Below are positions 2,951-59,392 of a stretch of 64,000 nt of DNA, in pieces. The DNA comes from Caprella mutica. Its lineage: Eukaryota; Arthropoda; Malacostraca; Amphipoda; Caprellidae. How positions within the stretch are numbered: the first letter of the stretch is position 1; each line of letters begins with the position of its first letter. Location: contig CANNZV010000422.1 of assembly GCA_947561585.1 (NCBI GenBank), positions 248,994 to 312,993 on the forward strand, written 5' to 3'. The translations under genes and the position numbers were made by a program. The notes beneath the pieces were generated by a model. The model had not been told where the DNA came from. It saw only the letters and a list, made by a program, of their open reading frames with translations, and made no database searches.

Positions 2951-4592
2951 TAACGTGCTGGTATAGAGTAAAGCAACAACGTGCTGGTAGAGAGTAAAGC
3001 AATAACGTGCTGGTAGAGAGTAAAGCAATAACGAGCTGGTAGAGAGTAAAGCAATAACGTGCTGGTAGAGAGTAAAGCAATAACGAGCTGGTAGAGAGTA
3101 AAGCAATAACGAGCTGGTAGAGAGTAAAGCAATAACGTGCTGGTAGAGAGTAAAGCAATAACGTGCTGGTAGAGAGTAGAGCAATAACGAGCTGGTAGAG
3201 AGTAAAGCAATAACGAGCTGGTAGAGAGTAAAGCAATAACGAGCTGGTAGAGAGTAAAGCAATAACGTGCTGGTAGAGAGTAAAGCAATAACGTGCTGGT
3301 AGAGAGTAAAGCAACAACATGCTGGTAGAGAGAAAAGCAATAACGTGCTGGTAGAGAGTGAAGCAATAACGTGCTGGTAAAGAGTAAAGCAATAACGTGC
3401 TGGTAGAGAGTAAAGCAACAAAGTGCTGGTAGAGAGTAAATCAATAGCGTGCTGGTAGAGAGTAAAGCAACAACGTGCTGGTAGAGAGTAAAGCAATAAC
3501 GTGCTGGTAAAGAGTAAAGCAATAACGTGCTGGTAGAGAGTAAAGCAATAACGTGCTGGTAGAGAGTAAAGCAATAACGTACTGGTAAAGAGTAAAGAAA
3601 CAACGTGCTGGTAGAGAGTAAAGCAATAACGAGCTGGTAGAGAGTAAAGCAATAACGAGCTGGTAGAGAGTAAAGCAATAACGTGCTGGTAGAGAGTAAA
3701 GCAATAACGTGCTGGTAGAGAGTAAAGCAACAACATGCTGGTAGAGAGAAAAGCAATAACGTGCTGGTAGAGAGTGAAGCAATAACGTGCTGGTAAAGAG
3801 TAAAGCAATAACGTGCTGGTAGAGAGTAAAGCAACAAAGTGCTGGTAGAGAGTAAATCAATAGCGTGCTGGTAGAGAGTAAAGCAACAACGTGCTGGTAG
3901 AGAGTAAAGCAATAACGTGCTGGTAAAGAGTAAAGCAATAACGTGCTGGTAGAGAGTAAAGCAATAACGTGCTGGTAGAGAGTAAAGCAATAACGTGCTG
4001 GTAAAGAGTAAAGAAACAACGTGCTGGTAGAGAGTGAAGCAATAACGTGCTGGTAAAGAGTAAAGCAATAACGTGCTGGTAGAGAGTAAAGCAACAAAGT
4101 GCTGGTAGAGAGTAAATCAATAGCGTGCTGGTAGAGAGTAAAGCAACAACGTGCTGGTAGAGAGTAAAGCAATAACGTGCTGGTAAAGAGTAAAGCAATA
4201 ACGTGCTGGTAGAGAGTAAAGCAATAACGTGCTGGTAGAGAGTAAAGCAATAACGTGCTGGTAAAGAGTAAAGAAACAACGTGCTGGTAGAGAGTAAAGC
4301 AATAACGTGCTGGTAGAGAGTAAAGCAACAACGTGCTGGTAGAGAGTAAAGCAATAACGTGCTGGTAGAGAGTAAAGCAATAACGTGCTGGTAGAGAGTA
4401 AAGCAACAACGAGCTGGTAGAGAGTAAAGCAATAACGTGCTGGTATAGAGTAAAGCAATAACGTGCTGGTAGAGAGTAAAGCAATAACGTGCTGGTAGAG
4501 AGTAAAGCAATAACGAGCTGGTAAAGAGTAAAGCAATAACGTGCTGGTAAAGAGTAAAGCAATAACGTGCTGGTAAAGAGTAAAGCAATAAC
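2951..4592. repeat. 26-bp minisatellite, about 63 units
   Basis: The unit starts TAACGTGCTGGTAGAGAGT and ends AAAGCAA. Point variants (GAGCTGG, GGTAAAGAG, AACAACG, AATAGCG) recur in blocks. A recognisable block with AACAAAGTGCTGG followed by AAATCAATAGCGTGC appears near 3415, 3834 and 4093, so segments of about 16 and 10 units were duplicated (higher-order structure). Because 26 is not a multiple of 3, all three minus-strand frames cycle through one 26-residue peptide. The long minus-strand open frames across 2848-4655 are by-products of the array. Confidence 0.97.
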
Positions 4593-5844: not shown

Positions 5845-6712
5845 GAAAACAACCATCAATTTTTGTAAATAAAGTGCATAGTGAAGGGTTGAAACAACCA
5901 TCAATTTTTGTAAATAAAGTGCACAGTGAAGGGTTAAAACAACCATCAATTTTTGTAAATAAAGTGCACAGTGAAGGGTTAAAACAACCACCAATAGTTG
6001 TAAATAAAGTGCACAGTGAAGGGTTGAAACAACCATCAATTTTTGTATATAAAGTGCACAGTGAAGGGTTATAACAACCACCAATAGTTGTAAATAAAGT
6101 GCACAGTGAAGAGTTAAAACAACCACCAATAGTTGTAAATAAAGTGTACAGTGAGAGGTTGAAACAACCACCAATAGTTGTAAATAAAGTGCACAGTGAA
6201 GAGTTAAAACAACCACCAATAGTTGTAAATAATGTGCACAGTGAAGAGTTAAAACAACCACCAATAGTTGTAAATAAAGTGTACAGTGAGGGGTTGAAAC
6301 AACCACCAATAGTTGTAAATAAAGTGCACAGTGAAGAGTTAAAACAACCACCAATAGTTGTAAATAAAGTGCACAGTGAAGGGTTAAAACAACCACCAAT
6401 AGTTGTAAATAAAGTGCACAGTGAAGGGTTGAAACAACCACCAATAGTTGTAAATAAAATGCACAGTGAAGGGTTGAAACAACCACCAATAGTTGTGAAT
6501 GAAGTGTACAGTAAAGAGTTAAAACAACCATCAATAGTTGTGAATAAAGTGTACAGTAAAGAGTTAAAACAACCACCAATAGTTGTGAATGAAGTGTACA
6601 GTAAAGAGTTAAAACAACCACCAATAGTTGTGAATGAAGTGTACAGTAAAGAGTTAAAACAACCACCAATAGTTGTGAATGAAGTGTACAGTAAAGGGTT
6701 ATAACAACCACC
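5845..6712. repeat. 45-bp minisatellite, about 19 units
   Basis: The unit begins GTGCACAGTGAAGGGTTGAA and continues ACAACCACCAATAGTTG then TAAATAAA. The first units have TCAATTTTTG where later units have CCAATAGTTG, so two unit types form left and right domains. The period is a multiple of 3, so each strand stays open: a 15-residue peptide on the plus strand (VHSEGLKQPPIVVNK) and a hydrophobic one on the minus strand. A decayed tail runs to about 6795. Not thought to be coding. Confidence 0.95.
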
Positions 6713-7017
6713 AATCGAAGAAATGGTGAAGGGTTATAACAACCATCAATCGGTATAAATAAATAAGCAGAAGGGTCATAACAATCATCAGAGTGTGGAA
6801 AGTGTTGCAGGCTGTAGTTAGTACATTATGGCCGTACTCTGAGCGTGTAACTCATCTGTTGATAATATCAGGCCATTTACAGACCAACTGAAGAAGACAT
6901 CATGAAATTAGGCTTTATTATAAGTATGAGCTATCAGCGCACTAAATTCGATGATTTGTAGTTAGGAGAGATAAGGCAGAGTAAGGGCGAGACTTAAACG
7001 CTATGTACTTACTGAGA

Positions 7018-32640: not shown

Positions 32641-32665
32641 GAAACAAGAAGGTATCTATCTATTC

Positions 32666-35312
32666 AAGTACAGTGTCCTTCAATACTGTTCAAGTACAGT
32701 GTCCTTCAATACTATTCAAGTACAGTGTTCTTAAATACTGTTCAAGTACAGTATCCTTCAATACTGTTAAAGTACAGTTCTTTCAATACTGTTCAAGTAC
32801 AGTTCTTTCAATACTGTTCAATTAAAGTTCTTTCAATACTATTCAAGTACAGTTCTTTCAATACTGTTCAAGTACTGTGTCCTTCAATACTGTTCAAGTA
32901 CAGTTCTTTCAATACTGTTCAAGTACTGTGTCCTTCAATACTGTTCAAGTACAGTTCTTTCAATACTGTTCAAGTACAGTTCTTTCAATACTATTCAAGT
33001 ACAGTTCTTTCAATACTATTCAAGTACAGTTCTTTCAATACTATTCAAGTACAGTTCTTTCAATACTGTTCAAGTACAGTTCTTTCAATACTATTCAAGT
33101 ACAGTTCTTTCAATGCTATTCAAGTACAGTTCTTTCAATACTGTTCTTTCAATACTATTCAAGTACAGTTCTTTCAATACTATTCAAGTACAGTTCTTTC
33201 AATACTATTCAAGTACAGTTCTTTCAATACTGTTCTTTCAATACTATTCAAGTACAGTTCTTTCAATACTGTTCAAGTACAGTTCTTTCAATACTGTTCA
33301 AGTACAGTTCTTTCAATACTGTTCAAGTACAGTTCTTTCAATACTATTCAAGTACAGTTCTTTCAATACTGTTCTTTCAATACTATTCAAGTACAGTTCT
33401 TTCAATACTATTCAAGTACAGTTCTTTCAATACTATTCAAGTACAGTTCTTTCAATACTATTCAAGTACAGTTCTTTCAATACTGTTCAAGTACAGTTCT
33501 TTCAATACTGTTCAAGTACAGTTCTTTCAATACTATTCAAGTACAGTTCTTTCAATACTATTCAAGTACAGTTCTTTCAATACTGTTCAAGTACAGTTCT
33601 TTCAATACTGTTCAAGTACAGTTCTTTCAATACTATTCAAGTACAGTGTCCTTCAATACTATTCAAGTACAGTTCTTTCAATACTGTTCAAGTACTGTGT
33701 CCTTCAATACTGTTCAAGTACAGTTCTTTCAATACTGTTCAAGTACAGTTCTTTCAATACTATTCAAGTACAGTTCTTTCAATACTGTTCTTTCAATACT
33801 ATTCAAGTACAGTTCTTTCAATACTATTCAAGTACAGTTCTTTCAATACTGTTCAAGTACAGTTCTTTCAATACTGTTCAAGTACAGTTCTTTCAATACT
33901 ATTCAAATACAGTTCTTTCAATACTATTCAAGTACAGTTCTTTCAATACTGTTCAAGTACAGTTCTTTCAATACTGTTCAAGTACAGTTCTTTCAATACT
34001 GTTCAAGTACAGTTCTTTCAATACTATTCAAGTACAGTGTCCTTCAATACTGTTCAAGTACAGTTCTTTCAATACTATTCAAGTACAGTTCTTTCAATAC
34101 TGTCCAAGTACAGTGTCCTTCAATACTGTTCAAGTTCACTGTCCTTCAATACTGTTCAAGTACAGTTCTTGCAATACTATTCAAGTACAGTGTCCTTCAA
34201 TACTATTCAAGTACAGTGTCCTTCAATACTGTTCAAGTACAGTTCTTTCAATACTATTCAAGTACAGTGTCCTTCAATACTGTTCAAGTACAGTTCTTTC
34301 AATACTATTCAAGTACAGTGTCCTTCAATACTGTTCAAGTACAGTTCTATCAATACTATTCAAGTACAGTTCTTTCAATACTATTCAAGTACAGTGTCCT
34401 TCAATACTATTCAAGTACAGTGTCCTTCAATACTGTCCAAGTACAGTTCTTTCAATACTATTCAAGTACAGTGTCCTTCAATACTGTTCAAGTACAGTGT
34501 CCTTCAATACTGTTCAAGTACAGTTCTATCAATACTATTCAAGTACACTTCTTTCAATACTATTCAAGTACAGTGTCCTTCAATACTGTTCAAGTACAGT
34601 GTCCTTCAATACTATTCAAGTACAGTGTCCTTCAATACTGTTCAAGTACAGTGTCCTTCAATACTGTTCAAGTACAGTGTCCTTCAATACTATTCAAGTA
34701 CAGTGTCCTTCAATACTATTCAAGTACAGTGTCCTTCAATACTGTTCAAGCACAGTGTCCTTCAATAATGTTCAAGTACAGTGTTCTTCAATACTATTCA
34801 AGTACAGTGTCCTTCAATACTGTTCAAGTACAGTGTCCTTCAATACTGTTCAAGTAGTGTTCTTCAATACTGTTCAAGTACAGTGTTCTTCAATACTGTT
34901 CAAGTACAGTGTTCTTCAATACTGTTCAAGTATAGAGTTCTTCAATACTGTTCAAGTACAGTGTCCTTCAATACTGTTCAAGTAGTGTTCTTCAATACTG
35001 TTCAAGTATAGAGTTCTTCAATACTGTTAAAGTACAGTGTTCTTCAATACTGTTCAAGTACAGTGTTCTTCAATACTGTTCAAGTACAGTGTTCTTCAAT
35101 ACTGTTCAAGTATAGAGTTCTTCAATACTGTTCAAGTACAGGTTTCTTCAATACTGTTCAAGTACAGTGTTCTTCAATACTGTTCAAGTACAGTGTTCTT
35201 CAATACTGTTCAAGTACAGTGTTCTTCAATACTGTTCAAGTACAGTGTCCTTCAATACTGTTCAAGTACAGGTTTCTTCAATACTGTTCAAGTACAGTGT
35301 TCTTCAATACTG
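32666..35312. repeat. 25/26-bp satellite, about 105 units over 2.6 kb
   Basis: Two unit types: 25 bp (TTCTTTCAATACTRTTCAAG then TACAG) and 26 bp (TGTCCTTCAATACTRTTCAA then GTACAG). The 26-bp type dominates the flanks and the 25-bp type the middle (about 32975-34000). On the right the TGTTC variant takes over (after about 34770). Shortened units (TACTGTTCTTTCAATAC, no AAGTACAG) recur near 33140, 33230, 33370 and 33790, evidence of segmental duplication. Long plus-strand open frames here are repeat artefacts. Confidence 0.97.
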
Positions 35313-35944
35313 TATATGAAATATCATTCGTATCAATCACTTAATTAGGTTAATTTATTTTCTAGATAAGTTTACTATATGGGATTTTTACGTATATGTA
35401 AATCACTATTTAATTAACCCTGGAACAACTGTCCCCCGGGCCGGTTTTAAATATTGCTGTATAATTTGATAACTAATTTACTGAAGTAGCTGAAACTTTG
35501 TGACTTTCATTTACTGTGACGTGTTTATGCATCGTATAACTTTCTCAGTGAAAATAATGCAACAAAATTTGTTCTATTTTGTTTAACATTATTTTTGATA
35601 AAAGGGGCTCTGGAGCCCGGATGAAGTGCAATCGCTGCTGATTCACATTTTTCATCACACTAGTAATATCACTTATAGGAATATTACCAATTTTTGGCTG
35701 TAAATAGCTATGTGACGCAACAGCGCATGTACTTCACCAGAGGAATAGATTTTCGTATGGTAATAAAATGTTTTAAAACTAAATATTTTGCATTACTTTT
35801 ATTAATTTCGCTTAAATAGGTTTTAAACTTTAAAAACTCTGGATTTCAAGGAACTCGAGTCAATATTTAATAGGAAAAAGTTCAAATTCCTACGCAAGAA
35901 GCCTCTCAGGCACCCTGGTGATGAATAAAAAACATTTTCATTTT
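35313..35944. other. Spacer, nothing seen
   Basis: No supportable gene or repeat; a small GC-rich spot is at about 35430 (CCCCCGGGCCGG). Confidence 0.4.
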
Positions 35945-43636: not shown

Positions 43637-44215
43637 TATTCATAAAAATCATTCATGATTTGTAAACATCATTCATGATTTGTAAACATCATTCATGATT
43701 TGTAAACATCGTTCATGATTTGTAAACATCATTCATGATTTGTAAACATCATTCATGATTTGTAAACATCATTCATGATTTGTAAACATCATTCATGATT
43801 TGTAAACATCATTCATGATTTGTAAACATCATTCATGATTTGTAAACATCATTCATGATTTGTAAACATCCTTCATGATTTGTAAACATCCTTCATGATT
43901 TGTAAACATCATTCATGATTTGTAAACATCATTCATGATTTGTAAACACCATTCATGATTTGTAAACATCATTCATGATTTGTAAACATCATTCATGATT
44001 TGTAAACATCATTCATGATTTGTAAACATCATTCATGATTTGTAAACATCATTCATGATTTGTAAACATCATTCATGATTTGTAAACATCCTTCATGATT
44101 TGTAAACATCATTCATGATTTGTAAACATCATTCATGATTTGTAAACACCATTCATGATTTGTAAACATCATTCATGATTCATCAACATCATTCATGATT
44201 CACTAACATCATTCA
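43637..44215. repeat. 20-bp satellite, about 28 units, very homogeneous
   Basis: Unit ATTCATGATTTGTAAACATC in perfect 20-bp register. Only single-base variants occur (CTTCATG four times, GTTCATG once, AACACC twice). The two AACACC variants and two of the CTTCATG variants repeat at a fixed distance of about 200 bp, which suggests duplication of a 10-unit block. The last units change to ATTCATCAAC and CACTAAC. Confidence 0.97.
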
Positions 44216-48229: not shown

Positions 48230-48403
48230 TATTATAATTAGGTTAAATTATTGGGTTAACAACGTTAAGACATAGAGTTTATTTTAAAGAGTAGTATATG
48301 TTTTACAGTTAGAAGTTTATTAGAGAGATGTGAGAAGCACATCTCTTACTGAGTAATGTAAAAGACAGACTAACGATAGAATTGACATACGGTGCTATAT
48401 AAG

Positions 48404-48410
48404 AAGCACC
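48404..48410. other. Target-site duplication AAGCACC, left copy
   Basis: AAGCACC here and at 50203-50209 flank the non-LTR element. In the uninterrupted LTR at 54762-55111 the motif occurs once, in AAGAAGCACCGGAACTG. Confidence 0.9.
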
Positions 48411-50096
48411 TTCACAGACATCTTCAATTTCTCACTTCAGAACAATAGTATACCCAACACCTGGAAACTTGCCAAAATCATCCCGATCCTGAAGCCCAAC
48501 AAACCCCCCACAGAACTGGCCTCATACAGACCTATATCACTCCTCTCCACCCCATCCAAAATACTCGAGAGGCTAGTTCTAAACAACATTTCACCACACA
48601 TCCCACTATCCCCCTCACAACACGGCTTCAGATCCCAACACTCCACATCTACTCTTCTTACCCACCTCTCACAGACAACACTCGAAGGCTTGAACTCCAA
48701 CAAACCTGCTGATAGGACAATTATAGCTGCCATAGACATTAGTAAAGCCTTCGACACGGTACCCAGACACCTACTAATTAACAAAATACTCAACACACAC
48801 ATCCACGACTCATATAAAAAATGGCTTGCCAATTATCTCTCAGGCCGCTCTGGCAAAACACTTTACAACGGCAAGTCCTCCAGAACACTTCACTACACTG
48901 ACGGGGTACCGCAGGGCTCCGTACTCTCACCTACACTCTTCAACCTATACCTTCACGACCTCCCTACGCCAACACACACCTCGGTTTACACTCTTTCATA
49001 CGCAGATGATGTCACCATCATCTCACAACATCACAAACACGAGACCGCCGCCAACAATTTACAAACATACATCCACTCACTAGAAGACTGGCTAGAAACA
49101 AACAGATTAAAGGTATCCGCAAACAAATCTTCTGTCACCTTAGTTACACCCTACACCCTTGAATACAGAACCCATCCAAACATTACACTCAACAACACTC
49201 CCCTTCCCATTAACAACATGCCGAAAATCCTTGGAGTTACACTCGACCGCGGCTGGACGTTCAAACACCACATAACCGACATTAACAACAGAGCCAAACA
49301 AAGACTGAACGTCCTCCGCACACTCACTCACACAACTTACGGACACTCCAAGGAAGACAAAACAACACTCTACAAACAGTTCATCAGACCCATCCTCACC
49401 TACGCCCACACAGCCTGGTCACCTGACATATCCAACACCCACCTACAGACACTCCAAAAAACACAAAACACCGCACTCCGCATTGCCACCGGTTGTACAC
49501 AAACAACACCCACACACCACCTACACACAGAAACACGAGTCCTACCTCTCACCTCACACATGGACACGAGGGGCACACAATTTTACACTTCTACACTAGA
49601 CCCCTCACATCCCCTACACTACATGCAAACTGAGAGGAGGACACCACGCACACTACACATCACCCCCTCCACACACTACAGACACCTCTACACCACTCTC
49701 CCTCCCACACCCGACAACACTTCTCTTCACAAACACATACACACCACTTTCACACAAAGAGCTCTAGCTTCCTCCCTTCCTAACAAACTCCTTGGGTCTA
49801 GGCCTCCAGCCATCGACCCTAGTGAGTCGGCCATGTTTCGTCGTGATAGGGTCACCCTATCACGTCTGAGATGTGGCCACCATCCTTCTCTTCCTTACTA
49901 CATGCACAGGATTGGGAGATCGGACTCTGATCGGTGCGACTTCTGCCAAGCCGACCAGGGCACGATCTCTCACATTCTCACACAATATCCGTCACTACAC
50001 CAACACAGGACTACACACAACATTCACTCACTGGAGCACCTTTGGACCCATCATCAGGCAGTTATTAACTTCCTGAGTGATGCGGGTTTCCCTTAG
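48411..50096 (+). CDS. Non-LTR retrotransposon reverse transcriptase (ORF2 C-terminal part)
   Basis: The frame is open for 561 codons from the truncation point at 48411 to TAG at 50094-50096; it has no native start. RT motifs appear in order: LAKIIPILKPNK with SYRPISLLS (finger), AAIDISKAFDTV (catalytic Asp, motif A), GVPQGSVLSPTLFNLYLHDL (motif B), SYADDVTII (YADD catalytic pair, motif C), and NKSSVTLVTP (motif D). The C-terminal part ends with CDFC ... ISHIL, a relic of the Cys-His domain of jockey-superfamily elements; the last expected Cys reads Tyr (ILTQYP). No endonuclease domain remains. The uninterrupted frame despite non-functionality argues for a young insertion. Jockey-superfamily placement is inference. 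Confidence 0.9.
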   Translation, partial: FTDIFNFSLQNNSIPNTWKLAKIIPILKPNKPPTELASYRPISLLSTPSKILERLVLNNISPHIPLSPSQHGFRSQHSTSTLLTHLSQTTLEGLNSNKPADRTIIAAIDISKAFDTVPRHLLINKILNTHIHDSYKKWLANYLSGRSGKTLYNGKSSRTLHYTDGVPQGSVLSPTLFNLYLHDLPTPTHTSVYTLSYADDVTIISQHHKHETAANNLQTYIHSLEDWLETNRLKVSANKSSVTLVTPYTLEYRTHPNITLNNTPLPINNMPKILGVTLDRGWTFKHHITDINNRAKQRLNVLRTLTHTTYGHSKEDKTTLYKQFIRPILTYAHTAWSPDISNTHLQTLQKTQNTALRIATGCTQTTPTHHLHTETRVLPLTSHMDTRGTQFYTSTLDPSHPLHYMQTERRTPRTLHITPSTHYRHLYTTLPPTPDNTSLHKHIHTTFTQRALASSLPNKLLGSRPPAIDPSESAMFRRDRVTLSRLRCGHHPSLPYYMHRIGRSDSDRCDFCQADQGTISHILTQYPSLHQHRTTHNIHSLEHLWTHHQAVINFLSDAGFP

Positions 50097-50202
50097 GCCC
50101 ACACACTCCCACACAGTGCCTCGGGTGGCTGAAACCCGGGGCGCCCCTGGCCGCCCCTCCGTCCCGGCGAGGATGTTGGGGAGGTTAAACAACAACAACA
50201 AC
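48411..50202 (+). mobile_element. Non-LTR retrotransposon, 5'-truncated, inserted in the copia LTR
   Basis: The element begins abruptly inside the reverse transcriptase reading frame and ends with a short GC-rich 3' UTR and an (AAC)5-type tail (50188-50202), with a 7-bp target duplication. Base composition is strikingly C-rich on the plus strand, unlike its AT-rich surroundings, so it is a recent arrival or keeps its own bias. 5' truncation is the usual result of incomplete target-primed reverse transcription. Confidence 0.93.
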
Positions 50203-50209
50203 AAGCACC
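50203..50209. other. Target-site duplication AAGCACC, right copy
   Basis: Directly follows the AAC repeat tail of the non-LTR element and continues into copia LTR sequence CGGAACTGTG. Confidence 0.9.
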
Positions 50210-50367
50210 GGAACTGTGTTCGGACTTTAAACCTTAAGTCCGTTTCTCATAAAAATAATACATTGTTATTTAAACAATAGCTAATTAATATAGCTCAGCT
50301 AATCTAACAGGAAGTTAACATTAAACATATATAAGAGCGTGTAATACATTAAACTAAAATTCCAACA

Positions 50368-50378
50368 CTCCTCCTCAC
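50368..50378 (-). other. Copia polypurine tract
   Basis: On the minus strand GTGAGGAGGAG lies directly before the 3' LTR. The same tract precedes the 3' LTR of the plus-strand relative at 59044-59054. Confidence 0.8.
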
Positions 50379-50384
50379 ACGACA

Positions 50385-53300
50385 TTATATATTTTCCATG
50401 CCTATTAATTCAACTAATTTAGTAAATCTATCAGTAGGCAAAGGTTTGGTAAATATATCAGCAAGCATATTTTCACTGGGGCAATAAACAAGTTTAATTT
50501 TGTTTGAAGCAACAAGATCTCTAATGTAATGAAATTTAATATCAATGTGTTTCGATCTAGGATGATTTTTAGCATTTTTAGCAATACAAATTGCTGACTG
50601 ATTATCCTCAAACAAAACGATAGGATTCTTATTAGGTACTTTAAGATCTAATAGTAATTTATTTAGAAATACAGCTTCTTGGGAGGCACCAGAGAGGGAA
50701 ACATATTCAGCTTCAGCCGTTGATAAAGCAACACATTATTTAACAGAAAGCATTGGCCAGAAGTACTTTTCCTATCAACTCTGTTACCTGCCCAGTCAGC
50801 ATCAGAATAACCTATCAAATCAGAATCTTCATTACCATATGTAATGCCAAGATCAGGTGTGCCCTTTAGGTATCTAAATATTCTCTTAATTGCAGTCCAG
50901 TGCTTAGTGTTTGGATTGGAACAAAATTTAGAGACATTTCCAACTGCATAAGTTATGTCAGGCCTAGTTTTAGTAGATAGATAAAGTAAAGCACCTACAG
51001 CTGACTGATATTTAGTTTTATCTACTAGTTCACAATCATCAGTAGTTGGTTCCAAATGAGAATTAACATCAGCAGGAGTGGACACTGGTTTACAATTATT
51101 GAATTCAAATCTATCTAATAAATCGTTGACAAATGAAGATTGATTGAATGATATTTTATTTTCGTCTTGTACGACTTTTATGCCTAAGAAATAGGATAAT
51201 TTTCCTAAGTTTTTCATCTCAAATTTAGCACTTAAATCAGTCTTGATTTTAGTCAGGTCATCATAGTTCTTACATGCTACAATAATATCATCTACATACA
51301 CAGAAATGAAGCATGGTGAGTCATTGATTATTTTAACATAAATACATGAGTCACAAGAGGACTGAATAAATCCTAAGGATTTAAGATATGCATCCAAAGA
51401 ATCATTCCAACATTTGGGTGATTGTTTTAAACCATACATAGATTTGTTTAGTTTGCACACTAAATCTTCTTTTCCTGGTTGAACATAGCCTGTAGGCTGT
51501 CTAATATAAACGTTTTCTTTAAGATCCCCGTTTAAAAAAGCAGAATTGACATCCAAGTGATGTACAAATAATTTTTGTTTAGCAGCTAACGATAACATGG
51601 TTCGCACCGATACAAATCTAACTACAGGAGCAAAAATTTCATCATAGTCGATTCCAGGTCTCTGTAAGAAACCCTGAGCGAATAATCTAGCTTTATATGA
51701 AGCCACTCTACCATCAGATCCCTTTTTCTTTTTAAACACCCATTTAGATTTAATGATATTCAAGTCTGAGGTAGGTTTTAAGAGTTCAAAAACTTTATGT
51801 TTGTCAAAAGCATTTAATTCCCTCTCCATGGCAAGTTTCCATTTAGAGGATTCAGAACCGCTATTAAGAGCCTCAAATACCGACCTAGGTTCGATATTGT
51901 TATTCCCATTGACTAATAAACCCTCCTCCTCAAACTGATCAAAGCTATAATCCCAACTACCGTATCTATCAGGAGCTCGACGCGTTCTAGACGATCGTCT
52001 ATTTTCCAGTTCAGGATGATCCTCATCTGGTCTGATAGCTGGTTCAGGTTGCGTCTCAGGTGCAACTGGAGGATTATAGTCAGGAGTTTGAATCTCCGGC
52101 CCTGCAGGTTCTGAATCTTCTGAAGGGAACACCAGTGGAGAGGTAAGGGGTCTCAATCAGTTTCTTAGATGAAACTGATTCATCAAAGGTTACATTCATG
52201 GAAAAGAAGATTCTTTTAGATTCAACATCATACATCTTATACCCTTTAGTAACAGTGCCATAACCAAGAAACAGGCATTTGGTAGCTTTATTTTCTAATT
52301 TTGATCGCTCATCTTGAGGAATGTGAGCATAAGCAGTGCATCCAAAATTTTTTAAATTCTTTACATTTGGTTTTCTAAGATTTAATGCTTCATATGGAGT
52401 TTTATTAACTAAAAATGAATTAATGCATCTATTGTTAAGGTAATTTGCAGTATATAGTGCTTCACCCCATAATTCCTTATCAATTCCTGAATCAGATAAC
52501 ATACATCTAACTTTTTCCATAATAGTTCTATTAAATCTTTCAGCTAACCCATTTTGTTCAGGAGTTTTAGGAATAGATTTCTGGTGAATTATACCTTCAT
52601 TGCGTAGATATGATTCAAACTTATTTGAGGTATATTCTCCTCCATTATCTGACTACAAGGTTTTAATTTTTCTTTCGTAAATATTTTCAACCATTGCTTT
52701 CCATTCCAAAAACTTCTGAAACACATCACTCTTATGGGCAATAACATATATCCAGGAGTATCGAGTAGCATGATCAATAAAGGTCAGAAAATATGAATTA
52801 TTACCCCTGGAAGTGGGAGTAATTTTCCCACAGACATCTGTGTGGATTAAATCAAGAGGTTTACAACTTTTCTTAATGCTTGTAGAAAATGGTATTTTAT
52901 GCATTTTCCCATTACAGCAGTGTTCACACACACCTTCTATAGCTTTTAATTTACTATCCAGACCATTAACTGATTTAGTTCGGATCATTTTAGTCAAGTC
53001 CTATATGACCGAGCCTTCTATGCCATAGAAGGTTTACTTTATTTTGATCAACAGTTACTGCAGCTTTATGTACTAAAGTATTTAGATAATAGAGTTGACC
53101 AACACAGTGAGCCTCAGCAATTAACTCTTTATTTTCGTTCAATATTTTACATTTATCATTTTCAAAACTAATAGATTTATTATTATTTGTCATTTTTGAC
53201 ACTGATAGTAGATTAAAAGCTAGATTTGGCACATATAGTACATCATTTATTGTACATTTTCTACTTCCACCACCTGGTATATTCACAATAACTGAAACAT

Positions 53301-54258
53301 TTCCTAGTGAAATAGCTTGCAAAACAGCTCCATTGCCTACTTGAACATTGATAGGTTTGCTAATATTTGCAAAATCTCTACATAAATTTTTATCACCACT
53401 CATGTGTTATGAAGAGCCTGAATCTATTATCCAAATATTACTGTCGTCATATTTGTTACAAAGAGCGCTATCATTAGCATACATTGTGTGATTAAGTTCT
53501 ATATGACTTACGTTTACATCATTTGGCTGATTTTGAGTTCTGTTAGTTTGAGAATACTGTTTAAATTTAAAGCAGTCTTTCTTCAAATGGCCTACTTTCT
53601 TACAAAAATGACACTTAATTGACTGTTTAGTAACTGCTGCATCAATCTGTGTATTCGATAATGCCAAACTATCATTGGATTTAATACTCAACTTTTCAGT
53701 TTCTCTCCGGAGTGTGTCAGCTACGGTATTCCAGTTAGGAATGTTTGACTGTTCTTCAAGCGCAGTAACTAAAACTTCAAACTGCCCTGGTAAGGATGAT
53801 AGTAGACAAATAACTTTATCCTCTTCACTGACCGCTTGATCCAACAAGGCAAGCTCTTGAAAAACTTCAGTTAGTTCTTTCAAATGGGAGTTGAGTAGTT
53901 CAGGAGATTTCAATTTCAAATTGTAGAGTTTCTTCTTCAGACAAAATTTGTTCGCCCACGTGTTTTTCTGAAACGTTTCTTGAAGGGTGGTCCAGACAAC
54001 GCGTGGATCAGTGGGTTGTCCAACTATGTACAATTGGTCAGGTGAAATAGATAGTACTATATCTTCCAACGCTTTATTCTTCTTAGTTTCATAGTCATCC
54101 TTAACAGCAGTTGAAGAGGAATCTGGTGGAACTGGTTTAGATCCATCAGCTATACCCATCAGTTTCTCTCTTAAGAGGTACATTTTCATTTGTACGCTCC
54201 ATGTAGGGTAATTATTTCCGTCTAGGGGAACAATCCCCGGTAACTTATTTGAAGACAT
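50385..54258 (-). pseudogene. Copia gag-pol polyprotein, disrupted
   Basis: The frame starts at ATG 54256-54258. The gag part ends in a zinc knuckle (CHFCKKVGHLKKDC); the protease core is WIIDSGSS. Integrase follows, with GHIG and CEHCCNGK, then SDNGGEY, then RT with YVDDIIVA, then RNase H with GYSDADWAG and ADIFTKPLP, ending at 50385. I see five breaks: TAA at 53407-53409 just after the protease core; a frameshift near 52997; TAG at 52653-52655 before SDNGG; a frameshift near 52150 between integrase and RT; and a small deletion with frame change near 50735 in RNase H. No functional product is possible. The undisturbed domain text between breaks shows moderate age. Confidence 0.92.
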
Positions 54259-54747
54259 GTTTTCAAGTATTTATTATCATTCAATACTTAACAAACATAA
54301 ACAAACAAAGCAGTTAAATTGATTTACTGTTTAACTGAATTGATATTTAATCAGGAATAATTATTCTAGTTCATAAGAATAAATTCACAGAATATAATTA
54401 TTAATATTCCAATTGGAACAGCAACACAGCTTAGTTCGCAAGAACCTTTTGTTGAAAGACTGTTTACCAAAGGATAAAGTCACAGATTTAAAGGTAATCT
54501 GTGATCTTCTCTTGACACCTCTTCCGCAAAGAATAATGAATAATTATATGAGACGAACAAATACAGATCGAGATATCAGTCAATATATTATTGACCTCAA
54601 TAGCGCATTAGCAAGGTATGCTTACACAAACATTCGTGCGTATAGGTGTCATTGAGTTACCACTTATCACTGTACTTAAGTCACTTGATTACTCAATATA
54701 CTTCTAAGTGTTTTTAAATATAATTTGATTTATAAACTCTTATCGTC
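54259..54747 (-). other. Copia 5' leader
   Basis: Untranslated region between primer-binding site and gag. Its segment just before the gag ATG (AATATCAATTCAGTTAAACA and following) is the single-copy counterpart of the 125-bp unit repeated five times in the plus-strand relative at 56343-56967. Confidence 0.75.
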
Positions 54748-54761
54748 CTGGGCCCATAACC
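54748..54761 (-). other. Copia primer-binding site (initiator tRNA-Met anticodon arm)
   Basis: The minus strand reads GGTTATGGGCCCAG directly after the 5' LTR. Its complement CTGGGCCCATAACC is the anticodon-loop region of eukaryotic initiator tRNA-Met. Priming from an internal tRNA fragment is known for Drosophila copia. Confidence 0.85.
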
Positions 54762-55111
54762 TGTTATAATTAGGTTAAATTATAGTGGGTTAACAACGTC
54801 AACATTATGACATGGAGTTTATTTTAAAGAGTAATATATGTTTTACAGTTAGAAGTTTATTAGAGAGATGTGAGAGGCACATCTCTTACTGAGTAATGTA
54901 AAAGACAGACTAACGATAGAATTGACATACATACGGTGCTATATAAGAAGCACCGGAACTGTGTTCAGACTTTAAACCTTAAGTCCGTTTCTCATAAAAG
55001 TAATAAATTGTTATTTAAACAATAGCTAATTAATATAGCTCAGCTAATCTAACAGGAAGTTAACATTAAACATATATAAGAGTGTGTAATACATTAAACT
55101 AAAATTCCAAC
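54762..55111 (-). repeat. Copia 5' LTR
   Basis: Runs from ATTCCAAC (outer end on the plus strand) to TGTTATAATTAGG (inner). Contains TATATAAG motifs near both 54945 and 55074, either of which could be a TATA box. Confidence 0.9.
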
Positions 55112-55645
55112 GCAACATACAGTCCTCTAAAAAGACTAATAGCAGGCTTAGCAGCCATGTTTCAGAGGCTGGAAAATTGTAAGCCAACTTTTGAGCCAAA
55201 ATTTCTCAAAAAATCTGAGCCAAGTCAATTTGGCTCATATTTGAAGATTTCAAGCCAAAATTAACATAGGATGTTGGGTACATAGGAATTAATTCAAAAT
55301 TTAAAGCCAATTAGACATATCTGAGATTTGACCATTTCAAATCTAAGCCAATTAATTGACTTTAACTGACATACTCTTATAGATACATGGAATAGCAGAA
55401 GATGAGGAAACAAAATGGGCAAGGCACAGACACAACGTGACTAAACAAAAATTCAAATAGGGATTATCAATTATGTAATACCTAATCATAATAATGTACC
55501 TTACAGTACCTAGGAGGCTAGGTCTTTTTAGTGAAATCCAGCTTAATACATATTTCACATCAATTTTAAAATTATATTAAAATAAGGTAATTGGCTATAC
55601 ACAAACTTGAAAAGATCCATTTAACGAACTATCAAATAATCAATG
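55112..55645. other. Spacer between two head-to-head LTR elements
   Basis: Contains repeated GAGCCAA / TTGGCTCA motifs (55192-55260) and an AACATAGGATG segment related to the remnant near 47650. No gene seen. Confidence 0.4.
55641..55645. other. CAATG target-site duplication, left copy
   Basis: CAATG directly precedes the LTR start TGTTG; the matching CAATG is at 59393-59397. Confidence 0.9.
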
Positions 55646-55983
55646 TGTTGAAATTTTAGTTAAATGTATTACACACTCGTTATATATTTAATGTTAACTT
55701 CCTGTTAGACTAGCTCAGCTATATTAAATTACCTATTGTTTCAATAACTATGTATTACTTTTAATGAGAAACGGACATAAGGTCTAAAGTCGATCACACT
55801 TCCGTCGAGGGTTAAATACCCTGTCTTGTTGGTTCTGAAATCAGTCTGTCTTGAACATTACTCAGTGAGAGATGAGTTCCACTCATCTCTCCATAGACTT
55901 CTAATTGTATAACATATTTACTCTTTAAATAAACTCTATGTCTTAACGTTGTTAACCCACTGTTATTTAACCTAATTCTAACA
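55646..55983 (+). repeat. 5' LTR of the non-autonomous element
   Basis: TGTTGAAATTTTAGTT ... CCTAATTCTAACA, 338 bp. A small dyad (GAGAGATGAGTTCC, ACTCATCTCTCC) lies near its 3' third. Confidence 0.93.
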
Positions 55984-55997
55984 GGTTATGGGCCCAG
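55984..55997 (+). other. Primer-binding site, initiator tRNA-Met type
   Basis: GGTTATGGGCCCAG immediately after the 5' LTR, identical to the site in the minus-strand copia element. Confidence 0.87.
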
Positions 55998-56342
55998 TGA
56001 ACGATAAGAGTTTATAAATCAAATTATGTTTAAACAAATTAGAAGTTTATAATAGTAATAAAAACGAAGTGCTGTGAAAAAAAGTGTTAACCTATATGAA
56101 ACATATCACTTAAAACGCTTGCGTAAGCAAATCGTGCTCACGCGCTAATGAGGTCAATTATAATGATTGCTCTAGCGAAAAATGCACTTGTGTTATAATA
56201 TAATGATTTAGTATTTTTGCGGAAGAGGTGTCAAGAGAGGTCACAAATTACCTTTAAATCTGTGACCTTATCCTTTGGTAAACAGTCTTTCAACAAAAGG
56301 TTCTTGCGAACTAAGGCTGTGTTACTGTTCCAATTAAATATT

Positions 56343-56967
56343 AATACTTATATTCAGTGCAGTTATTCTTATGAATTAGAATAATGTTAAAACATCAATT
56401 CAGTTAAACAGTAAATCAAGTTAACTGCTTTGGTCGTTTATGTTTGTTAAAGTATTGAATGATAGTAAATACTTATATTCAGTGCAGTTATTCTTATGAA
56501 TTAGAATAATGTTAAAACATCAATTCAGTTAAACAGTAAATCAAGTTAACTGCTTTGGTCGTTTATGTTTGTTAAAGTATTGAATGATAGTAAATACTTA
56601 TATTCAGTGCAGTTATTCTTATGAATTAGAATAATGTTAAAACATCAATTCAGTTAAACAGTAAATCAAGTTAACTGCTTTGGTTGTTTATGTTTGTTAA
56701 AGTATTGAATGATAGTAAATACTTATATTCAGTGCAGTTATTCTTATGAATTAGAATAATGTTAAAACATCAATTCAGTTAAACAGTAAATCAAGTTAAC
56801 TGCTTTGGTCGTTTATGTTTGTTAAAGTATTGAATGATAGTAAATACTTATATTCAGTGCAGTTATTCTTATGAATTAGAATAATGTTAAAACATCAATT
56901 CAGTTAAACAGTAAATCAAGTTAACTGCTTTGGTTGTTTATGTTTGTTAAAGTATTGAATGACAGTA
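56343..56967 (+). repeat. 125-bp tandem repeat, five units, in the leader
   Basis: Each unit starts AATACTTATATTCAGTGCAG, includes AATTCAGTTAAACAGTAAAT and ends AAAGTATTGAATGATAGT. Units differ at only one or two positions (GGTCG or GGTTG). A partial, more diverged unit follows at about 57025-57145. It corresponds to the segment just before gag in the autonomous relative. Confidence 0.95.
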
Positions 56968-57155
56968 AATACTTTCAACAAAAGGCTCTTGCGAACTAAG
57001 ACTTCTGTTTTGTTTCAATTGAATATTAATAATTATATTCAGTTATTCTTATGAATTAGAATAATGTTAAAACATCAATTCAGTTAAACAGTAAACTGCT
57101 TTGGTTGTTTATGTTTGTTAAAGTATTGAATGATAGTAAATACTTTCAACAAAAG

Positions 57156-57287
57156 GTGATTTGTCTTCTGTCATCACTGCCAGGGCCGTTTGAAGTGCTT
57201 GTCACTGCACTTGAAGCTCAGACAGACATCCCTAACTGGATTACCGTAGCTGACTCACTCCGGAGAGAAGCTGAAAACTTGAGTATT
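57156..57287 (+). pseudogene. Gag fragment
   Basis: 44 codons (VICLLSSLPGPFEVLVTALE ... SLRREAENLSI) closely match the middle of the copia gag at 50385-54258. The gag start and zinc knuckle are missing. The fragment is joined directly to the Gln/Gly-rich segment, so a chimeric frame of 178 codons (57105-57641) exists in which the downstream part is read out of the donor's frame. Confidence 0.85.
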
Positions 57288-57330
57288 CTTCTCAAACTAA
57301 CAACTCCTCATCCCAGAGCTACCCCAATCT

Positions 57331-57610
57331 GGATACACCCAGCAAGGAGGAGGATACGGCACTTGAAACAGTGGGGGGTACGATGGACAGCAGCAGAATT
57401 ACTATGCACAGCAGCAACAGACACCGCTAACCCAAATCTCTTACGGCAACTGGGGACAACAGGCACCGGGCGGTTGGAATGCCGCAACCACTGGACAAGC
57501 TGCCGGTACTTGGAGTGGCTATGGACAACAAACCGGACAAACGCCCCAGCAAAGCTGGAGCAACTCCACATACTTGTGGTGGCTATGGGAACTACAACTA
57601 CAAGAAGTAA
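57331..57610 (+). pseudogene. Captured 3' end of a Gln/Gly/Tyr-rich RNA-binding-protein-like gene
   Basis: In the frame starting at 57331 the text reads GYTQQGGGYG, a stop, NSGGYDGQQQNYYAQQQQ, then SYGNWGQQAPGGWNAA and WSGYGQQTGQTPQQSW. After a one-base slip the end is GGYGNYNYKK and a TAA at 57608-57610. This low-complexity composition is typical of C-terminal domains of hnRNP-type RNA-binding proteins. A plausible 3' UTR follows (GTAAATAAATAACC at about 57730). No introns are visible, consistent with capture from mRNA. The donor gene is unknown; the hnRNP label is inference. Confidence 0.6.
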
Positions 57611-58458
57611 AATAAGTAAAGACTTGTTTGTTTGTAAATAGCTACACAAGAAAGTGGTAGTGTTAAGTTGCTATAATGACTTAGTTTAACTGACATTTAA
57701 CTTACGCCATATTGTAGTTCTATTCACAGTAAATAAATAACCTGATGTTAGTCTAGTGGTAGGTTTAGTTAACTTTCGCCTCTACGGTTCTTGCACCGGT
57801 GTACAACTTGCTTCAGCATTTGTGAAGTGAATTCTCAAATTAATTGAAATTAGGCTCTTGGATAGTAGTTAGATAGAATTTTTATTGCTTTTTAATGATC
57901 AGCAGCTTAATCTTTGAATCGTAACAAAAACTACCGACACAACATTTAATTATTATTTTAATTGATGACTCAGCATGTTTACTTAATAGAAGTACGCGGT
58001 CTATTAGGTGAGCATATGAATTGAATACAGATGAATTGATATTCATACTGTGAATATTTGTGAATATTTAGAAGTGAATATTTAGAAATAAATATTTTTC
58101 ATTTTGAAATACTAATTAGATTTTGATGATTAGAAAATTTTAAAGTCAAAATAAATTAGGAATTTGCAGGAATGAACTATTTTTAAATTAATATACATAA
58201 ATGAAATGGTTATATTTATAACTAATTTGCAGTAAAATATTAAACGATCTTTCAATTTTTCTGAAGAAAGAATTTAATAGTAAATTTTATTCAATAAAAT
58301 AATTAAAAAATAGAAATTCTATTTTTTGAACGGAAGGATGTTAATTTTAATTGCATGATTATTAAGCAATGTTAATTTTTACAAATTAAATTGAAATAAA
58401 ATAAGCAAGAATGTCACAATATGTTAAGTTCAGTTTTGATGTGTATTCATACTATTTT

Positions 58459-58803
58459 TTATGTTATATGTAAGTTTGAAATATTTTATATACATAGTAT
58501 ATTTTCTTTTTGGATTTCTGAAGACTCTAATTTATATCGACATTCAGAAATAAAAAGAGGGGAAGAAAGGAATTATTTGAAATAGAATTAAACCATTAAT
58601 AAATGTTTAAAATTCTTGCAGTTATAGGTTTGAATTTTTATGTTACATGTAAGTTTGAAATATTTTATATACATAGTATATTTTCTTTTTGGATTTCTGA
58701 AGACTCTATTTTATATCGACATTCAGAAATAAAAAGAGGGGAAGAAAGGAATTATTTGAAATAGAATTAAACCATTAATAAATGTTTAAAATTCTTGCAG
58801 TTA
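58459..58803 (+). repeat. 181-bp direct duplication in the 3' internal region
   Basis: ATGTAAGTTTGAAATATTTT through AAATTCTTGCAGTTAT occurs twice with two or three differences. Function unknown; it may come from the captured 3' UTR. Confidence 0.9.
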
Positions 58804-59043
58804 TGATTGTTCAATTTGAATTTCAGAATTTTTTCAATTTGAGTTTTAATGTTTTGAATTTTAGGATTGATTAAAATGAGATTTATGTCTTTAAATTTAG
58901 AATAATTCATTTCCTATGTAAATTGTTGTTCATTGTTTTTTTTTTTTTTTAATGGATCGTCTGACATATTCTCTAAATCGTTGCCTATTGATAGATTTAC
59001 CAAATTTGTTAAATTAATAGGTATGAAAAATATAAAATGTCGT

Positions 59044-59054
59044 GTGAGGAGGAG
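59044..59054 (+). other. Polypurine tract of the non-autonomous element
   Basis: GTGAGGAGGAG directly before the 3' LTR. Confidence 0.82.
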
Positions 59055-59392
59055 TGTTGAAATTTTAGTTAAATGTATTACACACTCGTTATATATTTAA
59101 TGTTAACTTCCTGTTAGACTAGCTCAGCTATATTAAATTACCTATTGTTTCAATAACTATGTATTACTTTTAATGAGAAACGGACATAAGGTCTAAAGTC
59201 GATCACACTTCCGTCGAGGGTTAAATACCCTGTCTTGTTGGTTCTGAAATCAGTCTGTCTTGAACATTACTCAGTGAGAGATGAGTTCCACTCATCTCTC
59301 CATAGACTTCTAATTGTATAACATATTTACTCTTTAAATAAACTCTATGTCTTAACGTTGTTAACCCACTGTTATTTAACCTAATTCTAACA
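59055..59392 (+). repeat. 3' LTR of the non-autonomous element
   Basis: Read against 55646-55983 without finding a mismatch. Followed by CAATG (59393-59397). Confidence 0.93.

What the first reader, a model, noticed from the sequence alone, without database searches (positions are those of the whole stretch)
55646..59392. Apparently very young non-autonomous copia-type element carrying a host-like RNA-binding-protein tail
Seen: two 338-bp LTRs that read identical, intact CAATG duplication, primer site and purine tract, and no protease, integrase or RT. A gag scrap is fused to a Gln/Gly/Tyr-rich stretch (57331-57610) that ends in a stop and is followed by a UTR-like segment. Known: LTR elements can occasionally capture host mRNA. 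Inference: this is a gene-capturing family driven in trans by a copia relative, and it could spread a dead copy of an hnRNP-like C-terminus through the genome.
Basis: partly seen in the sequence, partly recalled or inferred. Interest (0 to 1): 0.88.

Follow-up and report, generated by a model that had tools for sequence, protein, structure and literature searches.

The report
Copia parasite carrying spliced hnRNP-U tail
This is a young mobile element that lacks its own enzymes and carries the spliced, now broken tail end of the host's hnRNP U gene, probably picked up when reverse transcriptase switched templates, and the same passenger now sits at well over a hundred places in this genome, likely spread by enzymes of related elements.

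Summary
The window element (55646-59392) has identical 338-bp LTRs, a CAATG duplication, primer site and purine tract, and no enzymes. Its Gln/Gly/Tyr-rich stretch comes from a host gene found here on contig C228, with introns and SAP, SPRY and AAA_33 domains: the hnRNP U (SAF-A) architecture. The elements carry its mRNA form: a 146-nt intron is removed exactly, and in the five longer copies read an 849-nt intron too. All 50 element loci examined (42 distinct copies) share a 1-nt deletion that the gene lacks, so one capture explains them. Three switch points share 5-10 nt. Four structural classes show repeated switching with gag sequence. Two searches give 146 places with passenger sequence (first-look candidates 294). 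21 of 22 LTR pairs lack substitutions. Full-length relatives exist, so help in trans is likely. Corrections: the passenger is not in frame with the gag scrap, carries a TGA and frameshifts, and about 1 kb of the 'UTR-like' part has an unknown source. Capture of host mRNA by LTR elements is known; this is a large, well-resolved new case.

The parts
55646..55983 (+). 5' LTR, 338 bp
   Evidence: identical to 59055-59392
55984..55999 (+). primer-binding site GGTTATGGGCCCAGTG
   Evidence: position; match to an internal part of initiator tRNA-Met, as in Drosophila copia, is recalled
56000..57152 (+). leader, including 5.1 copies of a 125-bp tandem repeat (56343-56974)
   Evidence: about 80-81% identical to the neighbour's leader; repeat number varies between copies
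57153..57287 (+). gag scrap, out of frame with the host part
   Evidence: 84% identical to 53817-53683; Retrotran_gag_2 E 5.7e-5, below cut-off
57298..57411 (+). captured part of the host exon before the last one (114 of its 162 nt); 1-nt deletion and TGA at 57364-57366
57412..57610 (+). captured last-exon coding part, joined to the previous exon without the 146-nt intron; frameshift near 57575; stop TAA 57608-57610
57611..57887 (+). captured host 3' UTR, first part
57888..58888 (+). AT-rich insert of unknown source with a 179-bp tandem duplication (58456-58804)
   Evidence: no credible match in 15.4 kb of the host gene locus; present in the copies read
58889..58970 (+). captured host 3' UTR, second part; ends in CTGACATATT, shared with pol
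58961..59041 (+). 3' end of pol region
   Evidence: 86% identical to the neighbour over 50461-50368
59042..59054 (+). polypurine tract
59055..59392 (+). 3' LTR
48232..55112 (-). neighbouring full-length but damaged copia relative (gag 54270-53407, integrase parts, RT 52156-50663), 3' LTR split by a LINE

Best explanation
The element is a non-autonomous copia-type LTR retrotransposon that carries the spliced 3' end of the host's hnRNP U mRNA, probably joined into it once by template switching during reverse transcription in virus-like particles, and it has likely been copied since with proteins supplied by related full-length elements. Shown by sequence: the donor gene and its introns; absence of the second intron from the window copy and of both introns from the five longer copies read; the shared 1-nt deletion; short shared sequences at switch points; further joins and deletions that made four classes; near-zero LTR divergence with clean 5-bp duplications. 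Inferred: packaging of the host mRNA, the order of the switches, and enzyme supply in trans. The passenger is likely non-coding baggage: the join was in frame with Gag codon 15 in one class, but all 50 element loci examined carry the frameshift.
For: Host gene: exon frames with SAP (1.6e-15), SPRY (2.8e-9) and AAA_33 (1.1e-6; 2.1e-5 for a second exon, just below cut-off). Splicing: 849-nt and 146-nt introns in the gene; the junction across the second is exact in 48 of 50 element loci, L042 and L046 differing in this 25-nt string; across the first, 17 of 18 nt of the upstream exon end match in class A. Single origin: 1-nt deletion in 50 of 50 element loci, not in the gene (42 distinct copies). 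Switch points: GGAAA between gag and host, TAACAG between gag and host in class B, CTGACATATT between host UTR and the pol sequence kept in L049/L050; chance of such runs at a random junction 0.55%, 0.18% and 0.0025%. Classes. Youth: 21 of 22 LTR pairs without substitution. Possible helpers: 137 gag relatives scored of 1363 candidates, 9 rows with 1,242-1,366-codon frames and no stop in the match; of eight whose 5' ends were read, four have LTRs 90-92% identical to the window's.
Against: The closest helper LTR found is about 92% identical; no full-length element with a matching LTR was seen, though 5' ends of only 8 of 137 scored gag rows were fetched. The 1-kb AT-rich insert has no known source, so the captured part is not one continuous mRNA. 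Element and gene differ by 6 to 11 of 273 UTR bases plus gaps (ten copies), so the reference gene may not be the exact donor allele. The right-hand join of L049/L050 shares only 1-2 nt. The first-intron evidence rests on 18 nt.
Confidence: 0.93

Rival explanations
1. The Gln/Gly-rich stretch is an ordinary low-complexity part of a copia gag or leader, or a chance frame, not a host gene.
For: Pfam, PDB (best E 0.27) and the large protein set (25 candidates, none at E <= 1) gave no credible match to the tail.
Against: A host gene with introns matches at 95-99%; the neighbour's gag has no such part.
Confidence: 0.01
2. The host piece entered as DNA (recombination, or insertion of a processed pseudogene) and not by template switching during reverse transcription.
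For: A processed pseudogene is also intron-free; the 1-kb foreign insert shows that other rearrangements took place; one join has only 1-2 nt in common.
Against: No poly(A) run is seen at the right-hand join; 5-10 nt of shared sequence at three switch points; the classes show repeated gag-host joins.
Confidence: 0.06
3. The captured segment does something for the element: as a Gag-hnRNP U fusion or as RNA it aids nuclear handling or packaging, so it was selected.
For: Class A copies join the gag start in frame to the host tail; the passenger is kept in all four classes and in 5 of 6 further places sampled through the AT insert.
Against: A frameshift 44 codons into the fusion, the deletion being in 50 of 50 loci; classes B and C lack the gag start; stops in the host frame of the window copy, L042, L045 and L050. 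The sixth place is a 5'-truncated copy without the tail.
Confidence: 0.1
4. The host gene acquired its tail from the element rather than the reverse.
For: Gene and element share the segment.
Against: The gene has GT-AG introns exactly where the element has none, and lacks the deletion found in all 50 element loci.
Confidence: 0.01

Closest known systems
LTR-mediated retroposition in metazoans (Tan et al. 2016; not held; known from passages in PMC8277862 and PMC5408686), including the CG17604_r family
   Same: Host mRNA joined to an LTR element by template switching at short similar sequences, then amplified with it.
   Different: Here one capture is carried at well over a hundred places by a separate non-autonomous copia family with four mosaic classes; the copy number of CG17604_r was not seen in the passages.
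Pxyfem of Plutella xylostella (passages of PMC9674220)
   Same: Insect LTR-element gag sequence joined to spliced host mRNA, with a 4-nt shared switch point, in several copies.
   Different: Pxyfem is 11 W-linked copies with LTR-element remnants that give rise to small RNAs against the parent gene; this family has whole LTRs and fresh insertions, and small RNAs were not examined.
Bs1 of maize (passages of PMC5408686)
   Same: LTR element that made copies of host genes.
   Different: Bs1 involves three genes; here one gene and an unknown 1-kb piece.
TRIM and LARD elements (PMC4717578 seen in listings only; features recalled)
   Same: Non-autonomous LTR elements with PBS and PPT but no pol, presumably moved in trans.
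   Different: Retains gag scrap and a host gene passenger; 2.7-4.0 kb interior, with a variable tandem repeat in the leader.

Membership tests
Ty1/copia (Pseudoviridae) LTR retrotransposon | LTRs with TG...CA ends and 5-bp target duplication | tested here: met
   TGTTG...AACA ends, CAATG; matching 5-bp duplications at 19 of 20 fetched loci, the twentieth (L056) being cut inside a tandem copy
Ty1/copia (Pseudoviridae) LTR retrotransposon | integrase upstream of an RVT_2-type RT in the coding relative | tested here: met
   neighbour, minus strand: weak integrase matches (rve 0.001, rve_3 2.3e-4, both below cut-off) and SH3_retrovirus 1.1e-28 at 52988-52083, then RVT_2 2e-77 at 52156-50663; the window element itself has neither
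Ty1/copia (Pseudoviridae) LTR retrotransposon | copia-type gag (Retrotran_gag_2) | tested here: met
   44-residue remnant, E 5.7e-5 but below cut-off; neighbour gag E 6.7e-42
Ty1/copia (Pseudoviridae) LTR retrotransposon | primer site complementary to an internal part of initiator tRNA-Met | not tested
   sequence read at 55984; the tRNA match is recalled
non-autonomous LTR element mobilised in trans | LTR, PBS and PPT kept, no enzymes encoded, many copies | tested here: met
non-autonomous LTR element mobilised in trans | dependence on a helper's proteins | not testable with these tools
   candidate helpers exist; dependence needs an assay
LTR-mediated capture of host mRNA | intron-free host sequence inside LTRs, with an intron-bearing parent gene | tested here: met
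LTR-mediated capture of host mRNA | short similar sequence at switch points | tested here: met
   GGAAA, TAACAG, CTGACATATT; the right-hand join of L049/L050 has only 1-2 nt
hnRNP U (SAF-A) as donor family | SAP, SPRY and AAA_33 domains in one gene | tested here: met
   exon order read from open frames along C228, no transcript seen; the family name rests on recalled domain architecture

The most novel reading that the evidence does not exclude
The passenger acts as a shield or a lever: because the elements share sense runs of up to 102 nt (window copy) or 202 nt (L043) with the hnRNP U mRNA, small RNAs that silence this family would also hit an important host gene, so the host cannot silence it freely, or the family has become a dispersed source of small RNAs that tune hnRNP U, an active counterpart of the Pxyfem system.
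Probability: 0.12. Interest if true: 0.9.

Novelty: new member of a known kind. Interest (0 to 1): 0.58.

Why it matters
The donor gene, the lost introns, the switch points, intermediate classes and over a hundred places with the passenger lie in one genome, so the capture of a host mRNA by an LTR element and its later reshuffling can be read step by step. It also gives a natural test of whether carrying a piece of an important host gene changes how a genome silences a parasite.

Tried and rejected
Naming the tail by protein resources failed: Pfam, PDB (best E 0.27), the 5.8-billion protein set (25 candidates, none at E <= 1), viral contigs (13 pattern matches, none confirmed, with the neighbour's RT: 8, none confirmed). 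The RRM_1 scan (150 scored of 296) and four RRM loci (frames listed for three of the four) did not hold the donor; C228 is not among the 150 rows. DNA queries score only the best 40 places each; the 29-residue host piece, mostly absent from classes B and C, let all 107 candidates be scored and showed the gene among the weakest rows. The source of the 1-kb AT-rich insert was sought in the gene locus and the genome (40 scored of 495); of 6 extra places sampled 5 carry tail and UTR like other copies and one (L076/L079) is 5'-truncated. Paper searches; the hnRNP U search found 379 papers with at least 4 of 5 terms and listed 10, none of which held 'hnRNP U'. I make no claim of absence from print beyond these searches. 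One search was a needless scan.

LTR dating is by hand: 21 pairs of about 337 sites without substitution; with a recalled insect rate near 3e-9 per site per generation the mean age is below about 70,000 generations (for the window pair alone only below about 1.5 million). The copies were chosen for likeness to the window, which favours young ones. The other pair (L056, 2 substitutions) lies in a tandem copy.
Full report
WHAT WAS CHECKED. Its LTRs are identical over 338 bases; the CAATG duplication, primer site at 55984 and purine tract at 59042-59054 are as described. The gag/tail frames gave only a 44-residue gag remnant in Pfam, and the neighbour's pol matches only at its last 94 nt. The leader carries 5.1 copies of a 125-bp repeat.

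A RELATIVE NEXT DOOR. On the minus strand, 48232-55112 is a full-length copia relative with gag (Retrotran_gag_2, 6.7e-42) and RVT_2 reverse transcriptase (2e-77), Pol_BBD, SH3 and weak integrase matches. Its frames are broken by stops and shifts and its 3' LTR is split by a LINE. The window element matches it in the LTR (81-85% by two alignments), leader (80-81%), a 135-nt gag piece (84%) and the last part of pol (86%). What lies between the gag piece and the pol end has no match in it. So the element is a copia derivative whose middle was replaced.

THE FAMILY. The captured stretch 57288-57700 matches 40 scored places of 294 candidates, all listed at 99-100%. Thirty loci cut from that search show the same order of parts as far as they reach. 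Twenty further stretches with element copies were fetched: 21 LTR-LTR pairs were measured in them, 20 without a substitution and one (L056, a tandem copy) with two; with the window that is 21 of 22. Three of the zero pairs have two gap columns, perhaps through trimming of match ends. Five-base duplications match at 19 of 20 loci; L054 is LTR-interior-LTR-interior-LTR with one outer duplication. Mean divergence among 41 copies over the captured part and insert (57327-58455) is 0.8%, at most 2.9%, one copy being compared in part. The number of matches to the 125-bp unit, degenerate units included, ranges from 3 to 12 per copy.

THE DONOR. Copies of one class (L042, L045, L049, L050) and the intermediate L043 carry about 65 nt more host sequence upstream. 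The protein of this extra piece, run into the shared part, was used as a query: all 107 candidates were scored and matched. One, on C228, has a different start and a wider spacing to the tail match. Of the other 106, five were read in full and are element copies; the rest are taken to be so. The C228 stretch shows a gene with introns. One exon ends ...GGAAACAGATATCAACAG|GT, an 849-nt intron follows, then a 162-nt exon, a 146-nt intron, and the last exon with 198 nt of coding sequence and the 3' UTR. Frames further up hold SAP, SPRY and AAA_33 domains, the make-up of hnRNP U, also called SAF-A; that naming rests on recalled knowledge. A PDB search with the SPRY part found DDX1 as the nearest solved relative (5.7e-12).

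PROOF OF AN mRNA ROUTE. The window copy lacks the second intron exactly; the five longer copies lack both, though for the first the upstream exon end compared is only 18 nt, 17 of which match. The 25-nt string across the second junction is exact in 48 of 50 element loci; L042 and L046 differ in it. All 50 share a 1-nt deletion that the gene lacks. These 50 loci are 42 distinct copies, because eight stretches overlap loci. Over 273 aligned UTR bases, gene and element differ at 6 for L043 and 11 for the window copy.

SWITCH POINTS AND CLASSES. Class A: gag through codon 15 is joined in frame to the host exon at a shared GGAAA; the host frame is lost 29 codons later by the 1-nt deletion. Class B, the most frequent among the loci read, which were picked for likeness to the window: a 302-nt gag piece, a deletion between two AGTATT copies that spans the zinc knuckle, then the host part entered at a shared TAACAG. 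Class C, with the window copy: the same with a shorter gag piece. L043 joins part of the class C gag piece to the class A host part. At the 3' side L049 and L050 keep more of host UTR and pol; in the other copies read these are joined at CTGACATATT, which L049 and L050 have in both parts (the neighbour's pol has one base different there). Random junctions show shared runs of 5 or more nt in 0.55%, 6 or more in 0.18%, and 10 or more in 0.0025% of 200,000 trials, with the neighbour as stand-in for the unknown helper. The right-hand join of L049 and L050 itself has only 1-2 nt in common.

WHAT THE PASSENGER IS. In the window copy the host frame is interrupted by TGA 57364-57366 and a frameshift near 57575 and is not in frame with gag. 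L043 keeps a 95-codon open host stretch, but preceded by the common deletion. So protein function is unlikely. The passenger is likely noncoding, carried because the ends of the element suffice for copying. The 1-kb piece 57888-58888, 21% GC, has no credible match in 15.4 kb of the gene locus. It is present in the copies read and matches 40 scored places of 495 candidates. Of six further places looked at, five carry tail and UTR like other copies and one is a 5'-truncated copy. Its source is unknown.

WHO MOVES IT. A gag search scored 137 of 1363 candidates; 9 rows show frames of 1,242-1,366 codons with no stop in the match. The 5' ends of eight of these nine were read: four have LTRs 90-92% and leaders 91-93% identical to the window's, the other four LTRs 86-88%. 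A helper within or near this group is likely, but none with a matching LTR was found.

COMPARISON. LTR-mediated retroposition of host mRNAs is known in metazoans (Tan et al. 2016; not held; passages in PMC8277862, PMC5408686, PMC8232201); PMC8277862 names the CG17604_r family as amplified in this way. Pxyfem (passages of PMC9674220) is traced by its authors to a switch between an LTR element and Masculinizer mRNA and yields small RNAs against its parent gene. A review of plant gene capture (PMC13317346, passages) describes abnormal template switching in plants. The present case belongs to this kind.

BOLD READING. The window copy shares 224 of 731, and L043 419 of 731, 31-mers of the gene's last two exons, with exact runs of 102 and 202 nt. 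Silencing RNAs against the family could strike hnRNP U. Nothing here tests that.

Noticed in passing
window 48411-50199: A LINE-type element (RVT_1 frame 48357-50096, E 7.1e-39) is inserted in the 3' LTR of the neighbouring copia relative, with GGTGCTT on both sides.
   Followed up: partly
window 2951-4592, 5846-6715, 32663-35313, 43643-44215: Large minisatellite arrays, up to 104 copies of a 25-bp unit; some read as long open frames by repetition alone.
   Followed up: no
window 56343-56974 and copies L039-L058: A 125-bp leader repeat varies from 3 to 12 matched units between near-identical copies; four full-length relatives have this leader segment twice.
   Followed up: partly
window 57888-58888: AT-rich 1-kb insert of unknown origin inside the captured host 3' UTR, with a 179-bp unit present 1-3 times in different copies.
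   Followed up: partly
L054 (G000:C4348:13600-22600): Two element interiors in tandem sharing a middle LTR, with one outer target duplication.
   Followed up: partly
G000:C310, C176, C1861 (rows): Three open frames of 652-660 codons with four RRM matches each and no introns, perhaps retrocopies of a poly(A)-binding protein gene.
   Followed up: no
L061 (G000:C1102:226300-227900): One of several neighbouring RRM open frames on C1102 (299-408 codons), possibly a tandem cluster.
   Followed up: no
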